Below, one piece after another: positions 16,601-56,300 of a stretch of DNA of 64,000 bases. Both the position numbers and the translations under genes were made by a program. The notes below the pieces were generated by a model that did not search any database, had not been told where the DNA came from, and was given only the letters and a program-made list of their open reading frames with translations. The first letter of the stretch is position 1, and each line of letters begins with the position of its first letter. The stretch covers positions 4,774,001-4,838,000 of the forward strand of contig NC_088708.1 in assembly GCF_963576615.1 (NCBI RefSeq). Reading direction: 5' to 3'. Source of the stretch: Watersipora subatra (lineage: Eukaryota > Bryozoa > Gymnolaemata > Cheilostomatida > Watersiporidae).

Positions 16601-19600
16601 CCTTTAGAGAATGTTCATCTTATGACCTAGCATGAGACAATATTATCATGCGATAGCTTGTAAACCACGATTAACCAAATAACGTAAAAGAAAATTGATA
16701 GGTACTAAGATGCATAACCACTGTTTTGTTCCCCACAAATAGCTAGAAAGAAGCAGAAATGCAAGAAGTGGAATAGAGAAAGCATGGTTGCATGCAGAGA
16801 AAAGTGGTCAGGCTATAAAGCGAGAAGAACTAAGAAATAGGAACAGCAAGCAGGGGTTCTCAGCAAATATTCTCAAGCTTTTATAATCGGTTAAAAATGA
16901 AAGTTATCAATGACGATTCCCAGCTGGTTAGTTTCATAAAATGCAAACAAAATATAAAAATATAGTCTTCAATGGAAAACTTAGTTAGAGTTAAAGGGTC
17001 GGAGCGAGTTATCACTCTACCTGCTTGCCTCTGCGACCCTGTCTTCCTTCCTCACCCTAAAATTTTTAGAAAGCCAATTTTGTGTTAGAAGATGGGCACT
17101 GACCCTGATGCAGTGGTTCAAAAGATAACAGAAAATAAGACATACCGACCAGCCCAACAACCCCAACCCTATTTATATAGGGTTGGGGTGATCCGTTCTC
17201 TCATAATCATTCATAGTAAGGAATCTCTGGTACTTTTGTATAATTGCATCATGTATTTAAATTGAAAATCTTAATATAAAACTTGCTATAATTGTTTAAC
17301 ATATTATTACAGATAAAAACAAAAACACACAGATGTAAACTAAAATTGTTTGTTTACGCTACAACTTCCATCTCGAATGCAGGGGTACGAGGTAATTGTT
17401 AGTGTGAGAAGCATATCCCTTTTAGATTAAAGCTAACTTTTTCGTTTTCATACACAGCTCTGTATTTTTACATTGAGCTCTTTCTCTTTAAGTTAGCTGC
17501 ATAAACCAGAACTATTATTACACATATGAAGCTGGCTACGCGCTCAAGCTACACAGCTGTTCATCAGAAGGAGGGCTGGGAAGACCTATGCTCTCACGGT
17601 CAGCGGCTTCCTGTCCTGACTAGCGAGAAAGCAGCCTTTCAGGGGTACAAACGAGCCTTTGTATTCAGCAAAATCTCACGACTGATCGACTTTTTGCCAA
17701 CACCTCTGATGACCCATATTCGCAGCGTTTAGTCAGCAACAATATTTTCTACAGCGTTAATGTTATTATGACGAAAGTAATTATAATAAAAAGCAGAACC
17801 TTTAAATTCTCACAAACCGGTAATTTAGATTATTGATGACATTTAGAGCATATATACGCGTATTTCTAACTGTAGAAATGTACTCCGTTAGTCTTTCAAC
17901 AGTCTGCTAGACAGTTTTCTTGCAATAATCAACAATCAATGAACTTATAGACTGGCCCAAGTGTCCAACTAGCTGGAGAGGCGGTGACCTTGACTGCAGC
18001 TGACTGCGCGTCTGAATGCACAGCTAACCACATGCCTGATACAGGCTTTGGCTAATGTTCGGCACGCAGAAATATTTTGAACCCACAAAAAATAGGCAGA
18101 TAAAATGCAAAGCTCATCCATTGAACACCACTGACGGGAAGTAACATGCGAGTGAATACCTTTTGGCCTGCGGGTCCACTGTCCCCCGTATTGCCCTTCA
18201 AACCCCTAAAACCAGTGTCTCCCTTCTTTCCATCAACACCGCGCTCGCCTTTAGCACCAGTAACACCATCTTGTCCGTTTGGACCAGGCTCTCCTTTTTC
18301 TCCTTGAGCACCATCATCACCTTTAGCACCGGTATCACCTTTAACCCCTGGTTCACCTTTTAGACCAGCTATACCTTGAGCACCTATTTTGCCTGGAGGA
18401 CCAGGTGCACCAGGAGGCCCGGGTGGCCCAACAATGACTTCTCCGGATTTTCCTTCAACCTCGAGAACAGCACCCTGCAAGGATCCACTGCATATCAATG
18501 AATGGGTTAGCCCACAGCTTTAAAAAAATGCTGGGATGGCAGTTGTTGAGGAACAGAACTACTCTAGTAGTTTTACCTGATTTCCTTTTTGTCCCTTTTC
18601 TCCACGGTCTCCTGGTACTCCTGTATCACCCTTTGCACCCTGACTTCCTTTTTCTCCTTTTATACCTGAACTTCCTTTAACTCCCTTAGACCCTGCCGGT
18701 CCTGCTACTCCTTGCCTTCCCACAAACCCCTGCTCTCCCTTTGGGCCCCTGAGGCCAGGTGTACCGTCTCTGCCAGGAGCTCCTTTATCGCCATCTTGGC
18801 CAGGTGTACCTGGACTACCTGGTATTCCATTGAGTCCTTGTCTTCCTTTAGGACCAACCTCACCAGGGAAACCAACTAACCCACGTGGACCTATTGGCCC
18901 TATAGAACCTAAATGGCCCTTTGATCCTTTATTTCCAGGCCTTCCAGATTCCCCTTTTTGACCTTTTATCAAATTCATGTTAGGTGTCAAACCTGGTTCG
19001 CCTTTTAATCCAGGAAGTCCCATCATGCCAGCCATACCTTTGACCCCCTGCACAGGAAATGGGTTACCATATAACCATGTGAAAACACTACCGGGGTAAA
19101 GAACAAGTTAGCAGAGCTTAGGTTTACAGTGTTAGACATTAACTCGCCCACAGGAGTAAGAGGCCACCACAGAAAGAGAGCATAGGAAAAGGTGGTATTA
19201 ATTTTGTCACAAACAAAACCTACTTTTAGTCCTGGAGGTCCTCTGAAGCCTGGTTTTCCGGCATTTCCTTTGGGACCTAGTTGACCAATGTTACCATCTT
19301 TTCCTGGAGGTCCTCTAGGTCCTGTTGGACCGGGTTCACCCCTTGAACCAGGTTCACCTGTCTCTCCCTGCCATAAACATATTTAGCATATTTGCATGAG
19401 ACCTAATTGTTTGGCTAACCAATAATGCTTGGGTTTGCACATAATAATGGACATAGGTTGAAAGGTTGGTGTTATCATGACTGTTCAAGATAGAACATAA
19501 AATTTAAAATACATAGTATGGAGTAAAGGCTAGACTAGTACGCAGCTGAGAACCTACTTTCAGTTCAATAATCCGAACTTGTAATGCTTTTTCGTCGAAG

Positions 19601-21471
19601 TCATTCTGAAGTGGCCATGCTGAACCGGGTTCTCCTTTTGCCCCCTATAGTCATATCATGTGCAATAAGTTAGCTTCACTCAGCTGTGATGCCCCACATT
19701 TATAGCAAGAATGCTAGCTACTGATTACATCATAACATTTTGATAACAACTTTTCTTCTTCCATGTTTTCCAGATTACTTTTCCCAGCAGGTGGTTTCTC
19801 TTATCAAAATTTTGGCTCAAGCGGCTAAATATAGTGAAACTACTTGGTTTGGCAATCATAGATAAAACCATAGATAAAACCTTGCTCAGTTGCAGCTTCC
19901 TACAAGACATTATCTATGGAAAGGAAAGAACTGGCTTGCACACATTTCTATTTCTTTATCAGCTGCGTTTTCCCTGACAAAAATATTTTGACACTATTTG
20001 ATATGATCACTTATGATTACGAATTAGTAGCAAACATTATTTTTAGTAAAATTAATTTATCAAGTTGTTGAAGTTGTTGCAATTATATATGCTGTAGTTT
20101 GGACTTTCATAAAAGCTAGCCGAGGCGGTCTAGGTTTGTACGGTTGTATCCGCGAATCACCCATTTCGTTACTCGCCACTTCTCAGGCTACTACATATGA
20201 CTAACAAATCCTTCCAAATAAATAGAAAATTAGAAGCTCGTAGAGAAGACTTATCTTGAGCAAACTGGTCAGGCAAATATTTGCATACATATACTTGCAG
20301 TACAAATATGCATGCAAGCGTCAATGGGCTGCAGTCGACGACAAATATCAATGAATGTTGAGAGTGCTCTAGACCACAATGTACACTTCTATCTTTGAGC
20401 AAATCAGCGGCTAATGCCAACCTCATAGAGGCCTAAGTGCGTTAACGTTATCTTCACTTCAATTTATTTTACATTTCGGCAGAGCTGCTATTCTGAAAGA
20501 ATAGGATATTTTAAACAATGGGTAGGTACGCATACCTTTTGACCAGCCGCGTCAAAACCAGGCAGGCCATCCTCACCCTTCTCTCCTTTTGCTCCCGTGT
20601 ATCCCTGTAATATAAGAAGCCTGTCTTCAAGGAATTAATTTAAGAAAACACTTTCGACTATGACAGATTTCTTAGAATATTTCGGTGAATTTTTAAAAAT
20701 GAAAAAATGCATCTTGACACCATAAGGTTTGAGGTTGCTGAAAACCAGATGTTTTACTTGGGCAAATGTTGCTATCCGATGAAAAAATGTTAGAATATTT
20801 CGGAGATGAGATAAGGTACAGATGCAAAAACATAAGCTTTTAATTACCTGTGAGCAAGCTCTTCTCGTCATGAAATAAAAACAACAGATTGCATTAAATT
20901 AACTACACGATTGTTTGAAGTCATCAAAACTTTTTAAACAGATCATATTATGCATACTGAACACTTCTATAGTGAATTATTCTTATTCCACAAGATCAAC
21001 AAAGCGTGTAGAAGATAACTCCTTAACCACTAGAACTTAATTGTTCAACTCAGTTCCCAGCGTGCAAGAGGTGCCAGTTAGTTACGAGAGGTAAGTTTAA
21101 AATAGAGGGTAACTTACTCTGTCTCCCTTGAGTCCTGTCTTGCCATCAGTGCCCTGCAATCAAAATGTCTCATACAATACACTCTATTTGCAAAATGATG
21201 AAATGTTGCAATCATAACCAAGGAACAAAATAAAAAAAATTTAATTATTAGAGAATGGCAACGAACATCAAATGCTATATATTCATATATAATGCCAATG
21301 ATGCTATAAATAACACTCAAACAGACTGGTACAGACGTAAGCAAACTTACTGACTGGCCCTTTGGTCCCTGTATGCCAATGGCTCCCTTCAACAAACAAA
21401 ACACACGAGTTGTGGTTCAACACGACCGACCGAATGAAAACAAAATACCAGACGACCGAAAGTATAAACCA

Positions 21472-21538
<67 letters not shown>

Positions 21539-24500
21539 TATATATATATACATGCATAGGAAAAGCATAAATATCAGCAACTGTCAATATTGTAGAGTAA
21601 GGGCTCATAACTAGAATATACTAACATAAGGTTGAGGTAAGGGTTACTGATGACAAGCTATCAAAACTGCAGACGCACATGTCAGAATTCTTAGGAGTGC
21701 AGAGTCTTGGTGTCACTCGGTAAACCACACAGCCGACTGCAGCTGCCAGCCCCACTTTACGCTGGGCTGGCAGCTCATGTGTATTCAAGCTCTGTACCAA
21801 CTCCTCTAAGCATAGCGATAAACACAAAATCATAACAGCTTTCTCTTCTCATCACACTACATTATTTCAGCCTTCCACTATGATTTCACACAACAACCAG
21901 TTCAAACTATGTGATTGAAGACAGTCTTGACAGCAGATGGCTAGCAGCCCTGTCACACAGCCTCTAAGGAAGAACACAATATCCTTCCTGATTAAAATTT
22001 TTGTGATCAAAAAATTATATTACTAGAAACCAAGTTTAAATGGACTTAACTAAATTGCTCCTGGCTAATCCAAATTTAATCCAAGTTTATTAAGACCCCG
22101 TCGTAGCAGATTATGGACATGGCTGAATACATAAAACTTTTAACAAGCAGATGACAGATAAGGCAAGAGGGGCAATGTTAGACTATAGAAAGGCCTGTGT
22201 ATCATTACCTTGATGCTAATGAACGTGAGCTTAGCAAGAGATAGAGGCTAATCAGTCTTCCCCTTTACTATCATGCACTCAGACAGTTTTGACATTGCAC
22301 TGACTGTATGAGATTAATTAGTACTATATACACACAACACGGCACAACAATCTGCTGCCTAAACGGCTTCAATTTTTTGGTGATGTCATAGCTATGCTGT
22401 CGGAAAGAAAGCTCCCCGCTCCAGCCTACGCACTAAAGGGTAGATGAGAGACTGTGTTAAGGTACTCCTTAGATACCTTGTATATAAATGTTAATGTCAG
22501 TCAAATCATGGCTTTGGGATTAAACGAAGTAGGAACAATTTGTGATGGACAGATGTTAAATTGAAGGCGAGGAAAAGTTATTATGATAGCAGAAGGTAAA
22601 CAAAGGGAAAGCTGGCAAAAGGAAGCACTCTGTAAGAGCGTACGAACCGGCCATCCAGGGTAGCCGTTAGGCCCTCTATCCCCCTGGAATAAAGTAGCAT
22701 TGGTAGTGAGAAGTAAGAAGGCAGGCGAGCCAGAGCATCGAGCCAGCAATTGTAAATTTCTATTTCAGTCTTTTTTTATATACCATGTGAGTAGATAAAA
22801 ACATTAGGAATCGTCAGCTCTACTATGACATAGAGACAAACTAGCTCGAGAAGGCTTTAGTAGCTGTGTAAGCCCTTAGTTAGAGTTGACATGTTATATC
22901 AGACTTCTATCTTCAATTCTTATCAATTGTCCAGAATATCAAACAAACTAATGCAACTGTTTACTTCAAACGTGGAAAAAGAATAAATTTATATTTTTGT
23001 AAGCAATTATGTTATCTAAATAATTTGCTGCAAATAATGCAAACAGGTCTAAACTAAGCATAGACCTTAACAAACTTCTAACATGCTTGGCGAAGTTGAA
23101 AGAAATGCGTTATCTACTAAGCCAATAAGAAATGAGCATGTGCTAGCTACACTCGACTAAACTACTGGCAGTACGCGATTACCTTTTTACCAGGCCAGCC
23201 GGGATACCCAACGGGTCCCTGTAATATTTACTTGTTGTTTTATTATCTGGCAGCATGGCTACCGCAACTCAAACAACAGTGCTTGGCAGCAAGACTACAC
23301 TGAGCCACACAACACTGCTAGACTGGTCATGCAGAGCTGCGCAATAACTTATAAGGATATACGAAAAATTATTTACTCAAAACTGGTGCAGTCAAACCTC
23401 CTCAATTCAACCTCCTAATACATACTGATATTCGCTTCATACCATAAGTCAAAACCATCACACGGAACTATTTTTGAAAGAATATGTTATACTTTGTTTG
23501 ATTCCTCTCAGAACCCAAAAGCAACAAAAATATGTTTAAATTAAGTTCTTAGTACTAAAGCATTTAGATTGTAAGAAACTGATAAAAACAATGTAAAAAC
23601 TAAATGAACAAAGTAATAATTAGTGAAAAAATGTTTTATTGTTACTTTGCTATGGAGAGGAAAGAGCAGACTCAGCAATGTTTAAGTTGTAGGATCAGTT
23701 GTTGGATGAGTGATAAGAATATGTGACACAACTAACTCTATATTACAATAACTTACTGTAACTTACACTAACTTACAATAAATATAGTATAATTGAGCTT
23801 AGTTTATGCACTTTGTATTATTTCTATGTTATTTTTAATTTTTACCAGCTTTTCTACTTTTGCTTGCAGAGCTGTAATGTTCTGAGAAATTTAGACACCT
23901 TGTAAATTTATATCGTTTGTTAGATTTTCGTGTTTAGAGGTAATTGTAAGTCGAGGTTTGGATGTATACGGAATACTAGCAGTGAGCCTTCGATGGTTTG
24001 CTGCCCAAGTCAGCGTCTAACGATTTATGCGTTTGCACTTCTCCTGTTCACAATTAGCTAGTTTCAAGCCACTAAGTAGCCTTAAACATTTGACCTATGA
24101 GTAAACTATTCTAATTTGTTTGAAAAACATTTCTAGAATCGGTTAGGCATAGCCCTCACTTGGATCTCCTTTCCACTTATGCAAAATATAGCCAACAAAC
24201 CAGCTCGAATCCAAACAAGTAAAAGGTTACATTTCAAATGCGTCTGTACTAAAACTTCGCATCAGGTGAGGCTCTAGTCTTTTGAGTCAGGTGACTCTGG
24301 CTAGCATACTCAATACGTCTCAGGAAAATGGTGCCGAAATACAAGAGAGGGTATCCCATCTCTCAACACATAAAACTGTAATTGTCTGGCTTCGGGCTTT
24401 TACATTCTAGTCTTTCTTAGACAACAGAGGTCTTTGTCGGTCTAATCTAATCGGAAAGGGAAGTTGAGAAGTTGCGAAGAATAGGCTTTTATTCATAGCT

Positions 24501-27086
24501 CAGAATAATGCACTTCTTCAACCTCGCCAGGCCAACAAATTAAATCAAGCTATTTTTATTACAGCTGAGAGAATCATAGAGAATAACTCATAAAATTGTG
24601 CAGGAGATGAACAGACCTGTTATTTCTAGCCTCTGATTCAATCCTGATATCGGTTATATACAATGGACAAGCTGTTCACTGTACAGTCAGTGAAAGTGGC
24701 AGCCTGTGATTCGGTGAATGAGTCACCATCATATCACCAACAATTTTTGACTAATGTTTAAAAAACTGGTTCCTATTTTTTCTATACAAATTTGTTTTTT
24801 TTTGACTCGGGATTTTTTTCAGTATGATTTTCGAGATGCTGTTTACGTAAAAATCATTCCCATTATCCACTTGCCATAATAAAATAGCAGGAAACCTTCT
24901 GTATAGCAGAGTGGAGTTGTATTGCTCCTATTCAAACCTATTTGAACGCTTATTCAACTCGATGTATTTAAAAGTCATTTGATTTAAACACAGCTACCAA
25001 AATCTTCTCTGATAATTTTATCATAAAGGCTGATGGCCATTTACTCTCTACATATTTGTCACAAACTCCCGTTGACAAAACACTCAGAAACACTTTCAAA
25101 GTTAACATGAAACTTATCAAACAGTTCTCAAAGATCTCAAAAAATGGTTTTAACGCCAAGATTGGTATCTACAGACTCCGTAAAATACATACCTTGGCAC
25201 CAGTTTCTCCTTTACCACCCTTTTCACCTGTAAACAGCAGGTTTAATATGACGTAAGGAGATAATCTTGGGTAAACATGGTGATCACGCAGGGCTGTCTG
25301 CAGCCTACATTTGTAAATACATAACTCGGAGTCTCATACGTATCTATTTCATCAGGAAATATGGGCAGCGCGCAGCGGTGTCCAGATAGCCACTTATCTC
25401 GCAGCGGATATGTTATTGAGCGAAGCTACAACTCTCATCAGCTGTTTACAATCTAAGTCACTATGAAGAAATTTGAAACCGTCTCTTATATCAGATGCTG
25501 TTTCTCTTTGCGAGTTTTATCTCTAGACCGATGTGACTGAAATATGAGCCACCATCACGACAATTTTCATTTGAGAAATTATTAACTTGTTGAGTCACGG
25601 TTCGGTTGTGTCTTACGTTAAAATGGTTATACACGTGGATTACTCTACTCAGCAAGAGTAACAAAGTTTTCTGTGTGCAGAAAAATATCATTACCTCTAC
25701 TGTGTTCTACACATCGGTATGAGAAGGAGCTATCAGAAGAAATGGCAAATGCTTACCGGGAGGACACCAACACTTGTAATCAGATGGAGAGCGTTGCTGC
25801 CTGGCTAAGTGGTCATCAATATTCACTTTTGTCTGACTATCTAGCACCTAAAATACAAGCAGTTCATAACTTACTATTATAATATTATATTTATTAAATG
25901 TAAAAAAAATGCTATAAGGCAATGTGTGAATAAATAGAATTCTCAAATCATACTGACCATTAGCTATATCAACATCTGTTTAAAATCAATATGTTGACCT
26001 CTCAAAAAAGCTCACATACATGAAGGGAATGGTCGACAAACACAAGCAACCCAACAATATAACATTTATATTATTGAACATAAAATTAATGACACCGATG
26101 AAGCAACCCAAAATAAAAGCTTGACATCTCGTCGTCTGTCACAAACCCGATATCCTATTTTTAAACAGCATGTATAAGCTCTCAGTCCTGCCTTTCTGTC
26201 TAGCAGGTAATATTGGCAACGCCGATACTACACGCGGTAGGAGCATTTTTACCTCTCCCACCATGCATCTAGTACCCATGATCATTGGGCAATCTTCACT
26301 ATTTTTGCATGTAGAGGCAATAATTTAGTTTGCTTACAACTGCATACCAAACATAGTTATTTTTGTAAAACAAAAGTTAATAGGTGGTCCATTAGGGCGA
26401 ACACAAAGAAAAGTTGTCCTAGCCGACCATTCAAAAGACTAAGCCATGAATAGCGGCAAGCAGAGCTTTTGTGGAACTATAACGTTATGCGTTTGACAAG
26501 TTACACAGCTACAAGATTTGCGGGCACATTTACAGCTGGTTAGTGTCATAGACCTCATGAACAATGACGAAGGGTCTGCAGAATTTCTTGGATCAATGAT
26601 GACAATGATGACACCTTTTATATAGGCAGAAAATATAACCCAACTAGAAAGTCAACAGTTAAGATCTTGTATACTTCTTACCTTGTTGATTTCCTGAGTT
26701 CTAAAATCAGCTTGAGAAGCAACTTCTAGACGAATTTGTACGAGACTAGCCTCTATGCTCGAGGTACGCTGTTCCAAATCATAATATGTAAAAAATAAAT
26801 ATGAAAAACCAGCCGCTAAAGCTAATACTATGACAGCTATAGGAAGAATAGTTAATAGGTTATGTAGAATTGCGCCACAACGAGGTCTCTTTAAAGTCAC
26901 CAATGATCTGCTAGCTGTTTCTTGATAACATTTGCTTTTCGGCAGTTCACAGCCTTGCCACGGCCTTATATGGCAATCCTTCTTTCGGAACCTTGCGATG
27001 TATTGTTTTGTAGGACTTGAACAGCCCAAGGCTTTTCTTCTCCTATCCATGCGGTATGATGAGTGAAACGCTTTTCCTCCAGCCAT
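7409..27086 (-). CDS. Transmembrane (MACIT-type, collagen XIII/XXIII/XXV-like) collagen, spliced
   Basis: Type II membrane collagen that would form a trimeric cell-surface rod, possibly shed. Exons in coding order (high-low): 27086-26682, 25847-25757, 25227-25193, 23218-23183, 22683-22648, 21386-21351, 21153-21118, 20604-20536, 19644-19558, 19367-19224, 19047-18577, 18474-18160, 17056-17021, 16111-15998, 15679-15617, 14891-14856, 14210-14175, 13865-13812, 11660-11589, 9123-8998, 8747-8694, then 7660-7409 or 8581-8519. All junctions are GT/AG, frame is kept throughout, and most exons start with a Gly codon. About 867 residues with the distal end, 804 with the proximal one. Domains: cytoplasmic 1-71, TM about 72-100, coiled coil about 101-135, an RQQR then CWCPPG linker, Gly-X-Y with short interruptions ([18 protein letters not shown]), a helical non-collagenous stretch in exon 19644-19558, and a C-terminal [14 protein letters not shown] motif typical of MACITs. 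Small exons could have been missed. Confidence 0.88.
8519..8581 (-). CDS. Alternative collagen last exon A (short C terminus ending in Cys-stop)
   Basis: Follows an acceptor (aactag/GGAATC) in phase 0 and encodes [20 protein letters not shown] then TGA. It is a paralogue of the distal last exon ([17 protein letters not shown]...C) and matches the short Cys-containing MACIT C terminus. A good donor-like site (GTGTAG/GTAAGG) lies just past the stop, so this exon could be a true 3' end or a stop-carrying cassette exon. A TTTATT on the plus strand at about 8019-8024 would be an AATAAA on the coding strand roughly 500 bp downstream. Confidence 0.68.
   Translation of the reverse strand, partial: GIPGLDAFPCPLGPDGLPAC
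9254..10130 (-). mobile_element. TTAA-flanked long-TIR element, copy 1 (Kolobok-like, non-autonomous)
   Basis: 877 bp between TTAA duplications (9250-9253 and 10131-10134). Both ends read AGGTTGACTTGC inward and the inverted repeat extends for well over 100 bp (through ctcttaaaagctcaaaaacg). No coding capacity. The TTAA target with a 5' AGG terminus fits the Kolobok superfamily better than piggyBac (CCC ends); the class is inferred. The interior is inverted relative to the copies at 11841 and 51261. Lies in a collagen intron. Confidence 0.85.
10215..10600 (+). repeat. tRNA-like SINE-type repeat, copy 2
   Basis: Begins actaactgtgctaccgggcg. About 240 bp in, it has a pol III-like A box (tagcctaattgg) and B box (gggtttgagttc) spaced as in a tRNA gene. 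It ends near a TA microsatellite. Not a functional tRNA: no acceptor stem is visible. A shorter relative of the leading core sits near 11167-11200. Confidence 0.65.
11841..12719 (+). mobile_element. TTAA-flanked long-TIR element, copy 2
   Basis: 879 bp between TTAA copies at 11837-11840 and 12720-12723, same family as 9254-10130 but opposite orientation. It lies in the collagen intron on the other side of the 72-bp exon 11589-11660. Confidence 0.86.
12763..13520. repeat. 47-bp minisatellite, about 16 copies
   Basis: Unit of 47 bp containing gacagataacctgtaggcc and cagcacaccaccaa, very uniform. Because 47 is not a multiple of three and the unit lacks stops on the minus strand, it generates overlapping open frames of up to 207 codons in several frames; none is a gene. 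Intronic to the collagen gene. Confidence 0.93.
15716..15915. repeat. Degenerate tandem repeat in collagen intron
   Basis: Diverged copies of a roughly 38-bp unit containing cagtctataataatc and agaagg/gaagtacct. Confidence 0.5.
16299..16505. repeat. 24-bp minisatellite, about 8-9 copies
   Basis: Unit ctatataactgtctgtagta plus four bases; the left copies carry tgtagtat and the right copies tatcatac, so two variants are segregated along the array. Being 24 bp, it keeps frame and makes spurious repetitive open frames on both strands. Confidence 0.9.
17161..17188. other. Perfect 12-bp stem, 4-nt loop hairpin
   Basis: ccccaaccctat / ttat / atagggttgggg, inside a collagen intron about 105 bp upstream (in coding sense) of exon 17056-17021. 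A stable structure in either RNA strand; function unknown. Confidence 0.6.
19558..19644 (-). CDS. Collagen exon encoding an internal non-collagenous, coiled-coil-like segment
   Basis: 87 bp, phase 0 on both sides, bounded by GT/AG. It starts in collagen frame (GAKGEPG), then runs [22 protein letters not shown] with no Gly-X-Y, and the next exon resumes GETGEP. The [13 protein letters not shown] stretch has hydrophobic spacing compatible with two heptads. MACIT collagens carry a second coiled-coil trimerisation segment between collagenous domains, and this is the natural counterpart. The assignment rests on position and pattern only. Confidence 0.7.
21476..21552. repeat. (TA)n microsatellite
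   Basis: Nearly pure TA run in a collagen intron, about 90 bp upstream (coding sense) of exon 21386-21351. Confidence 0.95.
23389..23965. mobile_element. Probable MITE with cagtcaaacctc ends
   Basis: Left end cagtcaaacctcctcaattc and right end gtaagtcgaggtttggatgt are imperfect inverted repeats. A matching end (gtagaggtttgactgtac) occurs alone near 62090-62107. No coding capacity. Confidence 0.5.
23966..25192. other. Collagen intron sequence
   Basis: Part of the long intron between exons 25227-25193 and 23218-23183. No further Gly-X-Y exon could be recognised, although a 36-bp exon is easy to miss by eye. Confidence 0.5.
25757..25847 (-). CDS. Collagen exon 2: juxtamembrane linker with RQQR and CWCPPG
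   Basis: 91 bp, phase 0 in and phase 1 out, which is exactly what joins exon 1 to the 35-bp exon at 25227-25193 in the Gly-X-Y frame. It encodes [19 protein letters not shown], then [16 protein letters not shown] fits the minimal proprotein-convertase (furin) pattern R-x-x-R. Vertebrate MACIT collagens are shed by furin-like cleavage in the equivalent segment before the first collagenous domain, where a Cys-Pro-Pro-Gly motif is also usual. Cleavage here is inference. Confidence 0.78.
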
Positions 27087-27199
27087 GCTTGATCTATCCT
27101 TAGCTCGTATACACCATCTTGAGAGACTCTTAAAGCTCTTCTCAAACCTCCAAGCTGTACGCCGACAAACCGGCTTGCAAAGATGCAAACTGACTGACG
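26682..27199 (-). CDS. Collagen first coding exon: cytoplasmic domain, TM helix, coiled coil
   Basis: The first ATG in frame is at 27086-27084, with A at -3 and G at +4, a strong start context; it begins [12 protein letters not shown]. Upstream in the same frame there is only a TTG. The encoded 135 residues are basic and Cys-containing, then hydrophobic ([20 protein letters not shown]), then a heptad-like stretch ([14 protein letters not shown]). No signal peptide precedes the helix, and basic residues (LKRPRC) lie on its N-terminal side, which implies type II topology. The donor AACAAG/GTAAGA ends the exon in phase 0. A pyrimidine-rich acceptor (cttttcttctctgcag) lies just upstream at 27200-27201, so this exon probably starts at 27199 and an untranslated exon lies farther upstream. 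Confidence 0.8.
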
Positions 27200-29388
27200 C
27201 TGCAGAGAAGAAAAGGGTAGAGAGTAGTATTGCAACAGCCTAAATACGCTTGAATATAAAGAGTGTTTGTTTTGCTCGAATCTTGTGAATTTGTGCAATG
27301 AGTGCATACTGATTAATGTATCTGTCATCTATCCGCTCTCTGATTGGCCAGAATATGATCAGTTATCAATTGTTACAAGGGAAGACAATCACTGCCAAAT
27401 AATCATTTCCAGATATTAGACAGTGTAGTACTAACATTTTTAGCACCGCACGACTTGCGCAATGATCTATTTTTGATGACAAAAACATTCATTTTCTAAA
27501 GCTTGTAGTACAGCCGCTTATTTACGGTTCACTTACAGCGGATAATCTCTTTTTAATCACTCGGATTATTCAGCCACTTGTTCACTGTCAAATTTGAAGT
27601 GTCAACATTTCTTGTCAAATTTGACAGTGAACATTGCCAGAGGATTTTTAAATTTGTCATTGTAATTTTGAGAAATAAATTTAGCTAACCGTAATTAGCG
27701 GCCATGTGATCTAAAATCGCATAAAAAAGATTTTCGTTTAAAAAAATTAATTTTCCAATCAGTAATAAATAAATGCTTGGGAAATTTGCATTAAACACTG
27801 ATATTTAAAGTATTTTGAGAAGGGCATATATGCATGTATATACGATGTTGGTGCAGATTAGTGTAAGACTGGCACATTAATTAGCCAATTGGAATGGAAG
27901 TGTTAACAGCAGGGAGAATTCATTTTACCAATATATGGCAGCAGCCAGACTCTGTATCTATGAAGTAATTAATACGCAATGATCGTGTTACAAGGTAATC
28001 AACTCCCTACACAACTGTGTCTCCATTTCTTTCTATAGGTTATTTAACCAAAACTCAATAAATATATATGTAAAAAATCATTTTTGTCCATCAGCGTTCT
28101 TCAGTCACTATATTATCAACACAGACGAAGTTTTAAGGTGTAGCCCAAGCATAACTGTACAGTCTGACTGCCATAAAAGAAATAAAAAACATGTTGTGCA
28201 GCCATTTGGATAATAGCTTGCTCATATCAGAAATTAGGTGCGTGGCTCAAATGAATGCCATTCAAATATGATCCCAATTGCTTTTTAGACTTTGCCTTTG
28301 GGAATCATTCACCTTCACGTGTATATAACAAATATATCCCAGAAGGATAAACTTGAAATTTATGAAAGTTATCACGATTTCTTTGCAGCCAGAACTTACA
28401 TATACATTGCATAGTTAGTGAGGTTTTATAAAAAATTAGACAGCCTCACAAACAGTAGTATTCGCTATACTCAGCTGTGAGACTTACAACAAAGGGAGTT
28501 GCCAAGTATATTCGTGAAATCAACATGAATACCAATTAGTCAGTGAGACCTCCTTACTAATAGTACTCTGCCTTTAAACTGGTGGTTTAATCCTTTGAGG
28601 GTTGAAATACGTAAAATATAGAAAAGATTAAATTTATAAAATATTGGTAGCAGTTTATAAATATATTTCAAAGCATTTTAAATGTTTAACATTCATTTGA
28701 ATTTAGCAGATGTCACTCCGCCTCTAGAAATGCTATCAAGCGCATTGATGGAGGTCAGTGAGAATGCCTGACCAAGGCAAAAATGTTTATGATAGGCACC
28801 TGACTATTTCTCCACTGTTCACCTTTAAGTCTTGTCCGTGCCGTCAGTACTGCATTTCACTGGCATCCTCTGTGAACCAGGCTTTAAGCATATGAAGGAT
28901 GATCAGATCAGAGGCAATACTAATACAAAAACAAAATCCCTAAGCTTTTTTCCAAATATTTTGGTTACATATGTCTTTAGACGGCACATTGACAGCTCTA
29001 CATAATTGGATTACTGTAAACACAGCATACACAATGTTGCTTGTTTGATGAAACGAGTTAAGAGTGAAAGCCCGCACAATACATACAATAACAAGTGTGT
29101 GAAATGTATCCGGCAAGGTCATTGAGACAAATTTCCGTCTGCCATATCAAGTCTGGTACAACTGCGAGTGAAAAACTTAATTAATGGTATATTAAACGGT
29201 ATCATTTTACAGATCTAACAAAACAAATGAATATTCTGCAATTGCATTTAACAAACTATCACCAAGTTAAGCCACATCATAGCTAATATCCGTTATATGT
29301 AACTGTCTCCCCTTAATATTTTGTCGTTTTCAACCTCATTACAGCTCCCATTATAATCTATTTAATCTAATTTGCTATTATATCATAA
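27200..29388. other. Region upstream of the collagen first coding exon
   Basis: Should contain the collagen 5' UTR exon(s) and promoter; no clear TATA box or CpG-rich patch was recognised. Includes the hairpin at 27580-27632. Confidence 0.4.
27580..27632. other. Perfect 18-bp inverted repeat with 17-nt loop
   Basis: gttcactgtcaaatttga at 27580-27597 and its exact complement at 27615-27632. About 490 bp upstream of the collagen start codon. Shorter than a typical animal microRNA precursor. Confidence 0.65.
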
Positions 29389-32684: not shown

Positions 32685-32885
32685 TCAATTTTTGATCATA
32701 CTCTCTACTGAGAGATCAATTCTCTTCCTGAGTGACTCGTGTATCTTACAATGAAATGCATGATGATGTACAGATTCATCTTCTGACAGACATGAACACG
32801 TCGGAGTGTACGTTATGCTCAATTGATATTTGTTGACAGTGTCCAGAGATACTACCAATCCCACGTGCGTCGAGCTTGCAGGCAT
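32685..32885 (-). pseudogene. Possible LINE ORF2 C-terminal remnant
   Basis: 66 residues including TCSCLSEDESVHHHAFHCKI then HESLRKRI. The C-x-C...H-x(4)-C spacing followed by LRKR resembles the Cys/His tail after the reverse transcriptase of several LINE clades. No polymerase motifs are present nearby, so the call is weak. Confidence 0.3.
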
Positions 32886-33320
32886 ATTGATCTTGTTTCT
32901 GAATACATGTAGGTGGTCAGGTGATAATAAGCATAACAGACCATCAGAACCATTGTGTGTTTTTAAAAAGTAGTTTCCACTTTTTTTCCCATTCAGTGTT
33001 TTAAAAATTTTAAATAATGGATGTTTTAAAATTTTCTTTTATTAGATCTTCTATTTTGTAACTTTTACTTATTAGCTTATTTAGATCACTTACCGATATA
33101 AATTACTTTTGTAGAGTACTTCTAGTATTTTCTTTGACAGTGGATAAGTCTTGAAAATTAAATTTTTGTTTTATGACTGATAACCTTTGTAATGAGCAGG
33201 TTATTTTGTGTGGAACTATACTAAATATGAGTCGTAATGACTCTTCTGGTGAGGTAAATGTACTGCGTAGAATTTGCTTAATGCATTGATATGTTTTCAG
33301 AGAGTGATTGCTGTTCTTTA

Positions 33321-33368
33321 TAAATATATATATATTTATATATATATACATGTATATATATATATAAG
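33321..33368. repeat. TA-rich microsatellite left of the ribozyme unit
   Basis: Alternating TA with occasional T or CATG interruptions, ending where the ribozyme-bearing sequence begins. Confidence 0.85.
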
Positions 33369-33705
33369 CCTTGCCTAAGCTCTGAGCTGCACTGATGAGG
33401 TTTCAATAGCTGAAACAGTACTGTCTGTAGCATGAGTATATGCTCCCTCACTTCGGTTTGGTTGAGCACTCTGTGAGAGGTGCGGCACTATTAGCCTTTG
33501 TGCAAAGCTCATCACTTTTGTGATTTGAGCACTCTGGTGTCAGCACATTGACTTTTTTAAAGTCTGTAAGGCAACTCAGTTGTTTCATGGCAGGAAGTCA
33601 ACCCTCATTGGTAATGGGATTTGTGTCCCTTGACTAAGCTCTGAGCTGCACTGATGAGGCTTCAATAGCTGAAACAGTACTGTCTGTAACATGAGTATAT
33701 ATATA
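33365..33705 (+). ncRNA. Retrozyme-like unit bounded by two hammerhead ribozymes
   Basis: Two copies of a hammerhead core in direct orientation. Copy 1: CTGATGA 33392-33398, GAAA 33412-33415, GTC 33423-33425. Copy 2: CTGATGA 33651-33657, GAAA 33671-33674, GTC 33682-33684. Predicted cleavage after each GTC releases a 259-nt monomer (33426-33684). Stem II is GGTT/AGCT in copy 1 and GGCT/AGCT in copy 2, with a TCAAT loop. Stem I of copy 1 is GCTGCA/TGTAGC (6 bp) followed by an internal loop and CTC/GAG. Stem III is the self-complementary CAGTACTG, too short to close alone, as in ribozymes of Penelope-like elements and metazoan retrozymes that act as dimers. Flanked by TA runs. No protein encoded. 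Confidence 0.87.
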
Positions 33706-33757
33706 CAGTGTATATATATATTATATATATACAGTGTATATATATATATATATATAA
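33697..33757. repeat. TA-rich microsatellite right of the ribozyme unit
   Basis: TA runs broken by two copies of acagtg. A further short palindrome (ataagtacaaagtatctttg...) lies nearby at about 33806-33832. Confidence 0.85.
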
Positions 33758-45116: not shown

Positions 45117-45984
45117 CAGTATAACACCTTTTAGTAGTCCTGTTAATAACAAGCCGCTACCATGACAGTAGAACTGTTACAGTGAACATCACTGCTCATC
45201 ACAACATGACAAATACATAAACATGTGTGTTCATGGTAAGCCACTTGAACTATTACGCGTTATATATAATGTCAATATTTGGCAAGTGTCTTGCAAGGTT
45301 ATTCGCTAGCAGGAAGCATAAACCCAGGATTATAAAATGCTGGAAAGAACAGTAATTTAATGGGGTTCTTAAGACTTACAACTACCAAACTTGATGGTAA
45401 ACCTAACAAAAATGATACATGATCCTGTTCGTTGATCCTGTTCAAACTTGTATCAATATAAGTAGCGGATTCAAGTACTCCAATATTTGTAACAAATACT
45501 CTGCCTCAAGAGTCTTTTACTCAAACAGGCTAATGTGAATTAGGATTTAATTTTAGAATCCTGATTTTAGAAATCAATAAAAATGATTTTAAAGTTGTCA
45601 AAAGAATTATCAAAGAGTTTTGATGTACCTTGATGTTAAAATAATTTATTGGATGTAAAAGTTAGTCCAGCAAATTAGCCATATTATTATTAAGTTAGTT
45701 TTGAAGCCAGTTCAGGTTATATCCTCGCTATAAATAGAAAAAAGCTAGCATAATGTTAAAAACTTCTTGGTCAATGATATTCATAGGGAGTAGATAAATA
45801 CTGTATCTGATAAAATTCAATTGCACCTTGACAGAGAGTAAAGCTGATAAAGATAAGCGAGTGAGTTTAACACCTTAATGATTCTACATGTAACTTCCAC
45901 CAATTTTGCTATTTTCATATTCTCTATATGTAACTTTCACTAATTTTGCTATTTTTATATTTTATATCTTTTGAATTAGGTACA
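45117..45984. other. Intergenic, no gene supported
   Basis: AT-rich. At 45885-45960 a 37-bp segment (taacttccaccaattttgct) is duplicated once, next to the start of the minisatellite. Confidence 0.45.
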
Positions 45985-46533
45985 TATACATACTATAGGT
46001 ACCTTATACATATTATAGGTACATTATACATATTATAGGTACATTATACATATTATAGGTACATTATACACATTATAGGTATCTTATACATATTATAGGT
46101 ACCTTATACATATTATAGGTACATTATACATATTATAGGTACCTTATACATATTATAGGTACATTATACATATTATAGGTACATTATACATATTATAGGT
46201 ACATTATACATATTATAGGTACATTATACACATTATAGGTATCTTATACATATTATAGGTACCTTATACATATTATAGGTACATTATACATATTATAGGT
46301 ACCTTATACATATTATAACATACATATTATAGGTACATTATACATATTATAGGTACCTTATACATATTATAGGTACATTATACATATTATAGGTACCTTA
46401 TACATATTATAGGTACCTTATACATATTATAACATACATATTATAGGTACATTATACATATTATAGGTACACTATACATATTATAGGTACCTTATACATA
46501 TTATAGGTACCTTATACATATTATAGGTACATT
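45985..46533. repeat. 20-bp minisatellite, about 26 copies
   Basis: Unit attatacatattataggtac with variants (cttatac, cacattat). Two breaks containing ataacatacatattat divide it into higher-order blocks, so parts of the array were copied as multi-unit segments. Confidence 0.93.
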
Positions 46534-49500
46534 AATACGACACCTTGATTTTCGTCCAAGCTGTTGCAATTGATTGGCTTTCAAATCACAAAAAAGGTGA
46601 TTTAGAACGTCTCTGGCCTGCACACAAATCTATTTATAAAACTAATATCTCATGTATCTATCCTACACGATGGGTCTATGTATCAAATGGCTGTTAAACT
46701 TTCACATTTAATATTGGTCAGTTGGTGTGCAGAGCAAGCTCAATTATCAACAACTTAATTTGACGTTAGTGCTGACCCTAAAAACTTTGATTATGTGTAT
46801 TTGCATGATAAGGAATTTTGGCATGTTGAAATTTATTTTCTCAACATTAATTAAAAATCACAGTAAAATGTCCCAAATGTATGAGTAAATTTAAAGCACA
46901 AGTAAAGGAAATTATGGAAAGTCATTCCAGGGTTTACACTTTTCCTTGTTTGAGTTTGTTGAGCATTTGAAACCAATGCTCAACAACTCTTAACACTCTC
47001 TCTATATTTATCTTTTTCACGAACTATAAACATGTGTTAGGTTTTTGTTAAATGAAAGCAATAGAGTTGAAATATACAAAGTTTTAATTGCATATTTAAT
47101 CTGCTTGCAAATTCTGAATAAAAATGATACACACTATTGAGTTACTCAGTTTTAGTGATTTTCAGTACGGCAGTCTTAAATGAAACATAACATTCTATTG
47201 TTTGGCTGTAACTTTAACTGAATTTATCTCAAATTTTGTGAGCTACCATTGAAATACATTATTTTTACAGTGTTTATGTTCATGATAAATCAGCATATTA
47301 CGTCTCAAAGATTTTCTGCTCAAGGCTACAGTCATGGCTACCTTACAGCCTCGATGCCGCACCCACATGACATGTAGGTGCGGCACGACATAGCAGGCGA
47401 CATGACATAACATCCCATACAATGTATAAGATGTTTTAATTTACAATGTATACATACTAAAATATATTTGTATATATATTTATGTTCTGGTAGTATAATC
47501 TTGTACTGTGAAGTCAAATCACACATATATAATAATTAAGGTTGTGACCATTACAAAAACTATTACAGTAGATTGATAAGTCCTTATAGATGACAAGATG
47601 TAAAATAAGTTGCAATAACATTGAAGCAATGCAGTAGTGAGCATTTCACAACCATGCAGTGTATATGCATTGAGTACTTTTACTATCACAGCATACATGG
47701 AGTACAGCTGCTGCTATTTCCTTATGTTCAGTAAGTATTATTGATGCAATGGAGAATCGCCTACTGCAAATTGTGCAGCTGTAGATGCAATAAGATTGTT
47801 GCTAGTACACATTGACTCAACATTATTTTAATGAGCCACAACCCTAATAATCGTATTAACTAGCAACTACCAAAATCAGAAGATATGGCAGTACTATAAC
47901 TGCAATCGGTTTGTTTGTACTTAGAGTTGTGCTCTCTTAAAAAATAACATTTCCGCGAAAGTGTTTGATTATTTCGACCGATAGTCTTAGATTTCGACAA
48001 ATAGTCTAAGAATTCGGCAAATAGTCTTAAATTTCGACTAAAAGTCTACGAATTCGACAAATAGCCTGTCGGCAACAACGGTTTCGACCAATAGATTTTC
48101 GACTAAATCTCTATTTCCCAATATTAATACTCCCATAATAGAAAAGCCCGTACTGTAGTTACTTTCTAGGAGGCCAGTCTAAATAATAGCGAATGACACC
48201 ACTCGAATAGCCTGTTTTCGATGGAGAAAGATTATCCCATTCTTTCTATATTAACTAACCATTTATCTGTATCTATTATAGATATATATATTTTTCAAGA
48301 ATTATTGCGCGTCTCCCGTATAATCGATTAAGATATATTCTACGGAAAAATCTTATATGTTACACTAAATTAAAGGTTGTCAGTTTGCTTTGAAGCTTCC
48401 GAAGGTGATTAATACGAAAATAATAAATTTTAATAGTAGCTTTTCTCGTACCATTTTGTCTGCAAACCTTTAACAACTTTGTTGAAAATCACTTAGTAAA
48501 GCAAACATATCTTTCGTTTACTGGTGTAAATTCTTTTAAATAGAATGGTTATGATTGTTGTATTATCAAAACGAGCCAGATACAACTAGACAATTATACT
48601 ACACATGTTTGCTTAACTAATTATCAGCGAAGACAGGCGCTAATAGTACAACCTACATTAGCCGAAGTAATTTATTTCATGACATGTATATGCATTAATC
48701 GCACAGACCACAAGTTTATAAATATTCAACTATGATTAATAAAGTAATGTTGGTGCGATTTGATGCTTTTGGTCTACAATAGTATTAGCGAGCTCACATT
48801 GAATAATGTTTTCTTTGCTTGTTTAACAACAAATATCACTCGGTGAGGTGGTTGTTTGGGGAAGATGGATTAATCTCAGATGTTTGAAGAAGATATAATT
48901 GGCTTTAGATATGGCTGAATAGGTGTTATTTAATGTGAGAAGTATGCTGGGCATGTGGGTGGCAAAATGAAATTTGTAGTGGGCTGCTGTATCTAGTGCG
49001 TTAGACATGAATGTACATGTGTGCAAGTAAGTTGTCTAAGTGGGTGGACATGTTTAAGTGCTTTAGATTCATTCCACATTTCTACGTGATTGCTATCATT
49101 TCTGAAAAAGATGGAGATGGCATCAAATTTGTAGAATTAAAAAACTTATTGTTAGGCCTATACTGCTACAGCAATACTTACCTTTTTTCTAGATGTTTTA
49201 GCACTATGGTTTACCTTTTCTATGTGTCTCAAACACTATTGTGAATAATTAATTGATTTGTTCAAGAACTGTTTTCATGGGCTGCTCATCATTCCTACAT
49301 TGGTACTAAATCTTTATAGGATTGTTAACAATTGCTTAAGCCTATTGCAATAAACTATATAGGCCTACTACTACTTCAGTTTTAAACAAAATACTGTGAA
49401 AGATGCAACAGGTTTACCAAAACTATATCCAAAGTATATGTTGCAGACCATGTAACTTTTTCATTTTAGAACAAAATGATGTATCTAAATAAAGCTCCAT

Positions 49501-53300: not shown

Positions 53301-56300
53301 GAATTAAGTGAAAGTGATGAAAAAAGGAAAAAAGTTGTCGATACAAACCATAGAGTTATCTCCCCCTAGAGTGATAACTGCGCCTTCAACAACACGAGCG
53401 TTTCCGGTGCCAACAAGGAGCGTTTAGGCCACGCCTCTTTTTTGTGCTAGTCAGTCGTAGTGATTGACAGAACGATAACATCAGCCATGAGAATGATCAT
53501 GAATTTCCACAGTTAAGATAGTAATTATTGCTCATATTAAAGAAATAATGATTATAGTTTATTACTCTAATATATGCTTACTATTTAAAGCAATTCAATA
53601 CCTACATGCCTTGCAAAGGCACTGAATAGATAGTGTTAAGTAAGTGAGTTAATGCAGTCAGTTACTCCAATGATATACAGCCCACCACACATGGGGGTTG
53701 TATATCATTGGTTATTCATAGATAAGATAGATAGTCATACTGGGGTTGTAATACATTGGTGTGATGGGAAGCTAATCGACTGCCATCAACTGAAAGTATT
53801 GACATTGTATGGTGATAGAGTGATTCTGACTGATTCATTGACACCACAGTTCACAAACAGCCCTTGCATGTAATATTAGATTTCAATACATATCAATCAA
53901 ATACATAGACTAGCTTGAAACAAGCAAAGATGTCCACTAACTAGTGGACATCTTTGCTTGATGTAAACAAGCAAAAAGTTTGAAAGTTAGAGTGGCAAAT
54001 GTTGTTATATGTTAGATAAAAATAAATTATACTTAGTTGTACTAAATTATAATTATTTAAAAATAACATAGAATTTTTTTACTACCTTATTTATTAAATA
54101 ATTTTTTATTGTAATCTTAGCTAAACAGATTATATCTAGCCATTACTTGCTAATTATTTCACATTTACATTTAAACACATTTGGAGTTTCATTTTTCTTC
54201 CTAATTCATTTTAACAAAAAACTTATTTCATCATATGAAATTTAAAAATTGTAGTTGTTTGAAAAAGCTTGAAAACATCTAGTTGTTTTTATTTTCTGTC
54301 TTCTCTTTATTTATTTTAATTACACAAAACACTTCTCATAATATGTAGTTTGAAAGTTAAAGTGGCAAATGTTGTTATATGCTAAATAAAAATAAATTAT
54401 TCTTAATTATACTAAATTATATAAAAATAAAATAGACTTTTTAATTACCTTATTTATTAAATAATTTTTCATTGTAATCATAGCTAAACAGATTATATTT
54501 AGCCATTACTTGCTAATTATTTTACATTTAAACCCATTTACAGTTTTATTTTTTTCCTAATTTATTTCAGCAAAACCCTTCTTTCATGATATGAAATTTA
54601 AAAGTTGTAGTTGTTTGAAAAAACTTGAAAACCTTTACAGTTGTTTTCTTTTTCTTCTTAATTCCTCTTAATTTCCATTTCCATAATTTATTTCCATAAT
54701 TCATTTCCATATTATTTCTATTTCCATAACATTTTCCTAATTCATTTCCATATTAATTCCATTTCCATATTAATTCCATTTACATAATTCATTTCCATAT
54801 TATTTCCATTTTCATAACATTTCCCTACTTCATTTCCATATTAATTCCATTTTCATAACATTTCCCTACTTCATTTCCATATTATTTCCATAACATTTCC
54901 CTAATTCATTTCCATATTAATTCCATTCCCATATTAATTCCATTTCCATAACATTTCCATAATTCATTTTCATATTATTTCCATTTTCATAACATTTCCA
55001 TAATTCATTTCCATATTATTTCCATTTCCATAAAATTTCCATAATTCATTTCGATATTAATTCCATTTTCATAACATTTCCATAATTCATTTCCATATTA
55101 TTTCCATTTCCATAAAATTTCCATAATTCATTCCTATATTAATTCCATTTCCATAACATTTCCCTAATTCATTTCTATATTATTTCCATTTCCATAGCAT
55201 TTCAATAATTCATTTCCATATAATTTCCATACCATTTCCATATTTCTAAAATAAAATTTCCATATCCATTTCCCTAAAATTATGGAAATATTTATGTTTA
55301 TGGAAATGGATATGGAAAAGTAAACATTTCCATAATATGTTTAGCGATCCCTGGTAGGTATTGAATTGCTTTAAATAATAAGCATATATTAGAGTAATAA
55401 ACTATAATCATCATTTCTTTAATATGAGCATTAATTACTATGTTAACTGGAAATTCGGGATCCTTATTTAACCCTTCTCATGGCTGATGTTATTGATCTA
55501 GTCAATCACTACTACTGACTAGCACAAAAAAGGGGCGTGGCCTAAACGCTCCTTGTTGGCACCGGAAGGGCTCGTGTAGTTATCACTCTAGGGGGAGATA
55601 ACTCTATGATACAAACCAATAATACTCCAGTTACATAAATTAAAATACATACAGTCATTAAATTAAAAAGTTGTCTATTATTTTTTCTTTTCAAGGTATC
55701 AAATGGATGAGTTTGGAAAGATCGCGGGACGGAGGCAATTTACACGTATCTCACTGTCCCTAATGTAAAATCCTGAAACGTAAAATGTTTCCAGAATGGA
55801 TTCGTTTACGTTGTGGGAGCATCTACTGTCCTTTCCAACATTCAATGTACAAAGTTTCTCTAAAGTTTTTAGTTTTGTAAATCAGTACATATGTACCCAA
55901 TTCTCCTTCACATAGTTTTGTTCTTCAGAGCTTTTAATCCTTTGGCTGGGTTAAAGCCCCTCAAAAACACCCGAAAGTCACGTAATTTATTGTTGAAAAT
56001 TCAATAAAATCGATATTTCATGAACATGCATAGCTCAAACTGAAATTTATTTCTATGAACAAATTTGTTGTACACAAACATTCATTTACATATCTACTAC
56101 TACAAAAAACTACGACCATGTAAAATTGTCCCTGTATGAAATGCTTGGAAGTATTCCATTTGGTAGAGTCCAACGCTATAACGTGGCCGTGTGAGCTACC
56201 ATAACGATCGTTTTTCTCTTTATATTCCAAGTATATTAGAAGTCCAAAAAGTTTATGTCACTTCTATCATCTGAATTATTTTTATTCTGATCAGACAAAA

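What the first reader, a model, noticed from the sequence alone, without database searches (positions are those of the whole stretch)
33365..33705. Tandem hammerhead ribozymes defining a 259-nt self-cleaving unit (retrozyme-like)
Seen: two copies of CTGATGA...GAAA...GTC in the same orientation, with pairable stem II (GGCT or GGTT with AGCT) and stem I (GCTGCA/TGTAGC in copy 1). The differences between copies fall in stems and keep pairing: GGTT to GGCT in stem II, TGTAGC to TGTAAC in stem I. Known: Penelope-like elements and small metazoan retrozymes carry such ribozymes with a very short, often palindromic stem III, and yield circular RNAs. Inferred: transcription would release a 259-nt RNA able to circularise. 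No protein is encoded, so it would be non-autonomous. It sits about 1.1 kb upstream of the RRM gene, between two TA microsatellites.
Basis: partly seen in the sequence, partly recalled or inferred. Interest (0 to 1): 0.9.

Follow-up and report, generated by a model that had tools for sequence, protein, structure and literature searches.

The report
Bryozoan hammerhead retrozyme in TA repeats
A small piece of non-coding DNA in a sea-mat animal carries a self-cutting RNA motif and belongs to a large family of mobile elements whose scattered copies look as if they were printed from RNA circles directly into TA-repeat DNA.

Summary
Two hammerhead-like motifs lie 259 nt apart at 33369-33441 and 33628-33700. 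They are a decayed copy of a large element family in the host, identified as the bryozoan Watersipora subatra. The genome holds 1508 hammerhead-core sites (reversed control 6) and 1185 3' junctions (control 0). A typical copy matches Rfam Hammerhead_HH9 below the curated cut-off (E 3.4e-4); window copy 1 does so weakly and copy 2 not at all. It fits the known metazoan non-LTR retrozymes.

What is added is the insertion footprint. Of 42 arrays found without regard to their ends, 41 end at one place, about 9-16 nt past the ribozyme cleavage site, next to TA repeats. Their 5' ends are scattered. Common family variants are nearly always uniform within an array. The simplest reading: an opened (TA)n target primes reverse transcription on a ligated RNA circle, and the enzyme runs round it until it falls off. 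The suspected partner, a Penelope-like element with GIY-YIG nuclease, was not detected; the one GIY-YIG match is SLX1. No RNA data were available. The window's own copies are probably poor ribozymes.

The parts
33369..33700 (+). whole retrozyme insertion: 5'-truncated first copy (starts at unit position 203), one full unit, 16-nt tail
33380..33436 (+). hammerhead copy 1: stem I GCTGCA 33386-33391 with TGTAGC 33426-33431 (outer CTC/GAG 33380-33382/33434-33436), CTGATGA 33392-33398, stem II GGTT/AGCT 33399-33402/33408-33411, GAA 33412-33414, stem III ACA/TGT 33415-33417/33422-33424, predicted cleavage after C33425
   Evidence: sequence, descriptor, HH9 16.0 bits
33639..33695 (+). hammerhead copy 2, same layout; CTGATGA 33651-33657, predicted cleavage after C33684; stem I has a C.A mismatch
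   Evidence: no Rfam hammerhead match
33426..33684 (+). 259-nt unit between the two predicted cleavage sites; longest stop-to-stop frame lying wholly inside 33369-33700 is 54 aa
   Evidence: 78 full copies of 259 nt in the fetched arrays
33685..33700 (+). 3' tail past the ribozyme site, TGTA(A/G)CATGAGTATAT, where the array runs into (TA)n: inferred start point of reverse transcription
33429..33444 (+). predicted hairpin (unit 4-9 with 14-19, loop AGUA) whose tip coincides with the 3' junction; competes with stem I
   Evidence: circular folds, (prediction only)
33319..33366 (.). TA microsatellite on the 5' side (target)
33696..33756 (.). TA microsatellite on the 3' side (target)

Best explanation
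It is one old copy of a non-autonomous retrozyme of Watersipora subatra. Proposed cycle. (1) A transcript running through an array cuts itself at each hammerhead, giving 259-nt RNAs (inferred from the motif and from the published family). (2) The ends are ligated into a circle (inferred; supported by exact unit joins and largely uniform arrays). (3) A retrotransposon enzyme opens a (TA)n tract; the TA-rich DNA end pairs with the AUAU at unit positions about 12-16, just past the ligated ribozyme site, and primes reverse transcription there (supported by the uniform 3' junction). (4) The enzyme runs round the circle and falls off at a nearly random point, leaving a head-to-tail array with a fixed 3' end and a variable 5' end (seen directly as footprint).
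For: Fixed 3' end: of 42 arrays found by whole-unit search, 41 end with the cleavage site plus the tail or a variant of it; of the 38 of these kept in the later set, 37 have (TA)5+ within about 60 nt on the 3' side and 33 on the 5' side, against 1.5% of 61-nt stretches in the 64-kb window. Genome-wide 1185 such junctions with up to 2 mismatches, reversed control 0. The tail lies beyond the cleavage site, so a monomer cut at both ends cannot be the template. Variable 5' ends: 55 arrays of at least one unit, no clear preferred position (Rayleigh p 0.67, 7-bin chi-square p 0.15). Uniform arrays: at 7 variant sites, chosen after seeing the table because both alleles are common, copies agree in 128 of 136 array-by-site tests for arrays of 1-2 units (88.3 expected at random) and 122 of 126 for longer ones (55.6 expected). 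Over all 69 non-CpG sites with a minor allele in two or more arrays, 105 of 212 cases agree, against 5.3% (at most 7.7%) after shuffling. Mean divergence within arrays 0.0099, between 0.0354; nearest neighbour in own array for 46.2 of 68 copies against 2.1 with shuffled labels. Selection on the ribozyme: 0 of 15 sites with a variant fixed in two or more arrays lie in the hammerhead (22% of the unit, p 0.022), while changes that differ within an array are as frequent inside (0.0176) as outside (0.0160). 61 distinct full copies fold as circles with mean -87.3 kcal/mol; the one copy compared with shuffles (L040) has z -5.0 to -6.0.
Against: No RNA data: neither cleavage, circles nor expression was observed. 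107 of the 212 non-CpG and 14 of the 20 CpG cases disagree within arrays, 12 of 262 at the 7 chosen sites, and only 15 of 25 arrays with two or more long copies form a clean clade; I read this as later mutation, but mixing is not excluded. A linear multimer copied from a uniform source array would leave nearly the same footprint, and gene conversion could add to uniformity. Rfam matches stay below the curated cut-off. The decayed window unit folds less well (circular -72.0; linear z -0.88). The autonomous partner was not found.
Confidence: 0.75

Rival explanations
1. Template is a linear multimer: the ribozymes fail to cut, and (TA)n primes on an uncut multimeric transcript of an existing array. 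The start point is the same; no circle is needed.
For: The Anolis Penelope-like protein uses unprocessed RNA and starts internally in vitro (PMC11167929, main text). Tandem arrays exist to be transcribed. About half of all shared-variant cases are mixed within an array (107 of 212 non-CpG).
Against: New arrays would inherit the unit-to-unit differences of their source array; at the commoner variant sites arrays are nearly always uniform (site 24: 11 and 10 arrays fixed for the two alleles, 1 mixed; 142: 13, 24, 1; 162: 18, 21, 2). No common variant lies in the ribozyme.
Confidence: 0.18
2. Ordinary satellite DNA spread by DNA-level events (unequal exchange, or excised DNA circles re-inserting by microhomology at TATAT).
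For: Tandem layout; 11 of 71 5' ends also lie at unit 3-16 (3.8 expected, p 0.0015, range chosen after seeing the data), as re-insertion of a circle opened at TATAT would give; inverted pairs around TA tracts that share variants exist (L098, L099).
Against: Short arrays dispersed on all 11 chromosomes, one fixed end and one scattered end, and 60 of 71 5' ends away from TATAT. Hammerhead spared among shared variants.
Confidence: 0.06
3. The motif is a chance or dead hammerhead look-alike in a repeat that moves for other reasons (SINE-like).
For: Rfam gathering search finds nothing; window copy 2 has no hammerhead match.
Against: Strict descriptor 0 in 150 shuffles; HH9 match of a typical copy; the hammerhead spans the point where 259-nt units join; hammerhead spared.
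Confidence: 0.03

Closest known systems
Metazoan non-LTR retrozymes (Cervera and de la Pena 2020, PMC7229834; abstract, results parts 1-2 of 3, discussion and passages seen)
   Same: Type I hammerhead with short stem III, tandem units of a few hundred bp, dimers and longer arrays, GC below 50% (46% on average over 78 full copies), no long ORF, strongly self-paired as a circle (predicted)
   Different: Here a bryozoan host, one (TA)n target class, one fixed 3' junction just past the cleavage site, scattered 5' ends. The paper speaks of larger TSDs when present; 'microsatellite' does not occur in its main text. Whether its elements share this footprint was not tested
Penelope-like elements with minimal hammerheads; Anolis Poseidon PAc (PMC11167929, abstract and main text)
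   Same: Tandem layout, hammerhead, AT-rich target, reverse transcription starting internally in a stem-loop, leaving a tail past the hammerhead
   Different: PLEs encode RT and GIY-YIG; this unit encodes nothing of that size, and here the start site resembles the target, which was reported not to be so for PAc
Newt/axolotl hammerhead satellites (as described in PMC7229834)
   Same: Type I hammerhead with very short stem III and palindromic loop, said to work better as a dimer
   Different: 330-350 bp units, unrelated hosts; no sequence comparison made
Plant LTR retrozymes (PMC4918200 seen in search listing only; features as described in PMC7229834 and PMC7761336 passages)
   Same: Non-autonomous, hammerhead, circular RNA
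   Different: Type III hammerhead, LTR, PBS, PPT, 4-bp TSD

Membership tests
Metazoan non-LTR retrozyme | type I hammerhead in each unit | tested here: met
   for the family; weak in window copies (59, 60)
Metazoan non-LTR retrozyme | tandem units of about 150-450 bp, many dispersed copies | tested here: met
   259 bp
Metazoan non-LTR retrozyme | no protein coding | tested here: met
   longest stop-to-stop frame wholly inside 33369-33700 is 54 aa
Metazoan non-LTR retrozyme | no LTR, PBS or PPT | not tested
   arrays are bounded by TA repeats with no terminal repeat other than the unit; no PBS or PPT search was run
Metazoan non-LTR retrozyme | GC below 50% | tested here: met
   45% in the window unit, 46% on average over 78 full copies
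Metazoan non-LTR retrozyme | stable self-paired circle | tested here: met
   prediction only: one copy against shuffles, 61 copies without shuffles; the decayed window unit folds less well (-72.0 circular; linear z -0.88)
Metazoan non-LTR retrozyme | self-cleavage and circular RNA in vivo | not testable with these tools
   no RNA data held
Metazoan non-LTR retrozyme | target site duplication (when present) | tested here: inconclusive
   target is (TA)n, so a duplication cannot be told apart
Penelope-like element | own RT and GIY-YIG | tested here: not met
   unit has no frame above 54 aa inside it; genome-wide the one GIY-YIG match at E 0.001 among 16 scored candidates is SLX1
Plant-type LTR retrozyme | type III hammerhead and LTRs | tested here: not met
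   open end is stem I; arrays have no LTR-internal-LTR layout
Rfam Hammerhead_HH9 (RF02275) | score at or above the curated cut-off of 52 bits | tested here: not met
   23.5 bits, 16.0, none

The most novel reading that the evidence does not exclude
Retrozyme circles in this bryozoan are copied by target-primed, rolling-circle reverse transcription directly at opened (TA)n DNA, with the ligated ribozyme junction folding into a hairpin that presents the AUAU start site and shuts off stem I, and the enzyme is not a canonical GIY-YIG Penelope-like element but some other, possibly TA-microsatellite-specific, reverse transcriptase.
Probability: 0.35. Interest if true: 0.82.

Novelty: new member of a known kind. 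Interest (0 to 1): 0.58.

Why it matters
For metazoan retrozymes the published model says that a circular RNA, 'properly primed', is reverse transcribed by an unknown partner, with Penelope-like elements as strong candidates (PMC7229834 discussion; PMC7761336 passages). Here more than a thousand 3' junctions in one chromosome-level genome show where priming seems to happen and on what target, sampled arrays look like copies of single units, and in this genome the favoured partner's nuclease was not detected. Template, primer and enzyme become directly testable.

Tried and rejected
Compensatory change between the window copies (reader): rejected, the family form shows decay. Loose hammerhead pattern as evidence: rejected. 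Minimum-energy folding of single window copies: not better than shuffles; linear 259-nt window unit z -0.88. Pestivirus, microRNA and Plasmodium Rfam matches around the motif: AT-rich chance, far below cut-off. (TA)n as a slippage tail added by the enzyme instead of a target: less likely, since 33 of 38 arrays also have (TA)5+ on the 5' side; some slippage is not excluded. A partner element sharing the 3' tail: 27 exact tails genome-wide lack the C of GTC, control 0, so no abundant one at zero mismatches; the count of tails with the C did not complete. Constant fall-off rate: in 44 arrays from loci found by the junction pattern, lengths do not clearly depart from exponential (p 0.10, 42 arrays of 60 nt or more) but 7 of 23 at risk end at 259-300 nt. 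Some 5' ends called as unit position 1 are really short upstream fragments that the alignment missed (L003, L049, L094). Family PF26215, which I recalled as possibly Penelope-related, is not in the library. PF00078, PF01541 at E up to 10, counts of internal joins and of tails with C did not complete, so Penelope-like RT without a recognisable nuclease was not tested. PMC4209133 is not held.

Rows dropped: 99 array chains were made from L001-L095; 14 failed the filter of at least about 60 nt and an end at unit 259 (among them L025 with another 3' end and five short true copies); 10 were dropped because their sequence lies wholly in a longer array, of which one (L074) is the same place as L040 and nine are other places, and 4 as same-flank duplicates, leaving 71.

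Full report
What is there. The window has two direct copies of a 73-nt stretch, 96% identical and 259 nt apart, each holding a type I hammerhead layout: stem I, CTGATGA, 4-bp stem II, GAA, a 3-bp stem III with palindromic loop GTAC, cleavage site GTC, stem I. A strict descriptor, written with the motif in view, finds only these two in 64 kb and none in 150 shuffles. Rfam finds nothing at its cut-offs nor any hammerhead up to E 10 when 501 bases are given; with the motif alone copy 1 gets Hammerhead_HH9 at E 0.074 and copy 2 none, whereas a typical copy gets HH9 at E 3.4e-4, still below the curated cut-off. So the family carries a recognisable hammerhead and the window's copies are worn.

Host. 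A window protein is 98% identical over 72% of its length to a Watersipora subatra protein on a contig of 79,350,317 bases, the length of contig C1. The published assembly is 783.70 Mb with chromosomes of 79.35, 77.13, 75.93, 67.13, 66.62 and 66.55 Mb (PMC12902671, passages); the six longest contigs here agree to within 0.01 Mb. It is a bryozoan.

Family. The unit search gave 134 matches from 40 scored of 1412 candidates, on contigs C1-C11, head-to-tail at 259 bp, full units 93-97% identical apart from the query itself. The hammerhead core occurs 1508 times (control 6); of the 100 listed, 99 look like this family by eye. The 3' junction with (TA)n occurs 1185 times with up to 2 mismatches, control 0.

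Array anatomy. In 45 loci from the unit search, 42 arrays were found; 41 end with the cleavage site followed by TGTAGCATGAGTAT or a variant and then TA-rich repeats; one (L025, of which L026 is a near copy) ends at unit position 83 against another sequence. The unit itself continues ...GTATATGCTCCC, so the junction lies at its own TATAT and because of that overlap can be placed only to about positions 12-16; three arrays end at about position 9 (L006, two in L023). After the drops listed under Tried and rejected, 71 arrays remained of 99 chains. Of these 71, 59 match the unit through position 16; 33 of the 71 come from loci picked by the junction pattern, so their 3' ends are no independent evidence. 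5' ends are scattered, with an excess at positions 3-16 (11 of 71, 3.8 expected), as if after whole rounds the cDNA end could also pair with TA.

Why a circle. The 3' end lies past the ribozyme site, so the template contained an unbroken or re-joined cleavage site. Copies in an array agree at the commoner variable sites: 128 of 136 tests in arrays of one to two units, 122 of 126 in longer ones, against 88.3 and 55.6 expected (7 sites chosen). Over all shared-variant sites agreement is lower, 105 of 212 non-CpG and 6 of 20 CpG cases, but shuffling gives 5.3% for the non-CpG ones; rare alleles shared by chance through repeated mutation would produce such disagreement. Unequal exchange cannot easily homogenise arrays that hold one and a fraction copies. 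Within-array divergence is 0.0099, between-array 0.0354. This is what one RNA circle copied for more or less than one round would leave. A linear multimer from a uniform array remains possible.

Does the ribozyme matter? Sites with a variant fixed in two or more arrays avoid the hammerhead (0 of 15, p 0.022) while changes that differ within arrays do not. The number is small.

Predicted switch. Folded as circles, 61 distinct full copies average -87.3 kcal/mol; unit positions 4-9 pair with 14-19 (loop AGUA, at the RT start) with mean probability 0.38 (above 0.5 in 16 of 61), and this excludes stem I, mean 0.42 (above 0.5 in 27 of 61). This is a prediction only; it resembles the stem-loop start site of the Anolis Penelope-like element (PMC11167929).

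Partner. Published work favours Penelope-like elements (PMC7229834 discussion). In this genome the GIY-YIG family search scored all 16 candidates and found one match, which is SLX1 by its relatives. This is evidence against a canonical Penelope partner, limited by the sensitivity of one Pfam profile; the control genomes are prokaryotes, so there is no positive control with a Penelope element, and RT-based searches did not complete.

Literature. Searches for retrozyme with microsatellite (2 papers, listing only), Penelope-like with microsatellite and hammerhead (2 papers, listing only), Penelope-like elements with microsatellite and GIY-YIG (6 papers, listing only), retrozyme with target-primed reverse transcription (1 paper, listing only), hammerhead ribozyme with dinucleotide repeat (1 paper, listing only) and bryozoa with hammerhead (4 papers, titles and abstract starts on fish or biogeography) showed no report of this footprint or of a bryozoan retrozyme. 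The W-element paper of Schistosoma (PMC8490949) and the Flustra genome paper (PMC13326412) were seen as passages. Subscription papers are mostly not held, so this is not proof of novelty.

Noticed in passing
L098:60-785 and L099:1-586: Tail-to-tail inverted array pairs around a central (TA)n whose two sides share uncommon variants (by eye: the same odd tail in L098, the same change after GCC in L099), as if one insertion was duplicated in inverted form through the self-complementary TA tract.
   Followed up: partly
L023:1447-2247, L099:364-999: Head-to-head array pairs (5' ends overlapping by 5 nt or 26 nt apart, both 3' tails facing TA tracts); priming from both strands of one break, as reported in vitro for a Penelope-like element, would give this.
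   Followed up: partly
L085:2440-2470, L093:800-862: Fold-back (snap-back) inverted repeats at array 5' ends, a sign of cDNA self-priming or template switching.
   Followed up: no
L025:1364-1447 and L026:1815-1897: The one array type whose 3' end is not at the tail: it stops at unit 83 and continues as another sequence shared by both loci.
   Followed up: no
window 32685-33038 (-) and 4604-4963 (+): ORFs that look by eye like transposable-element remnants (cysteine-rich RT-like end; helix-turn-helix transposase-like); Pfam gives no match.
   Followed up: no
window 12759-13521, 45977-46534, 54668-55246, 59044-59423: Minisatellites of 47, 20, 41-164 and 27 bp.
   Followed up: no
window about 18050-27240 (-): Collagen-like exons (PF01391 in the one tested) and upstream a membrane-anchor-like ORF whose database relative carries the collagen domain; probably one transmembrane collagen gene.
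   Followed up: partly
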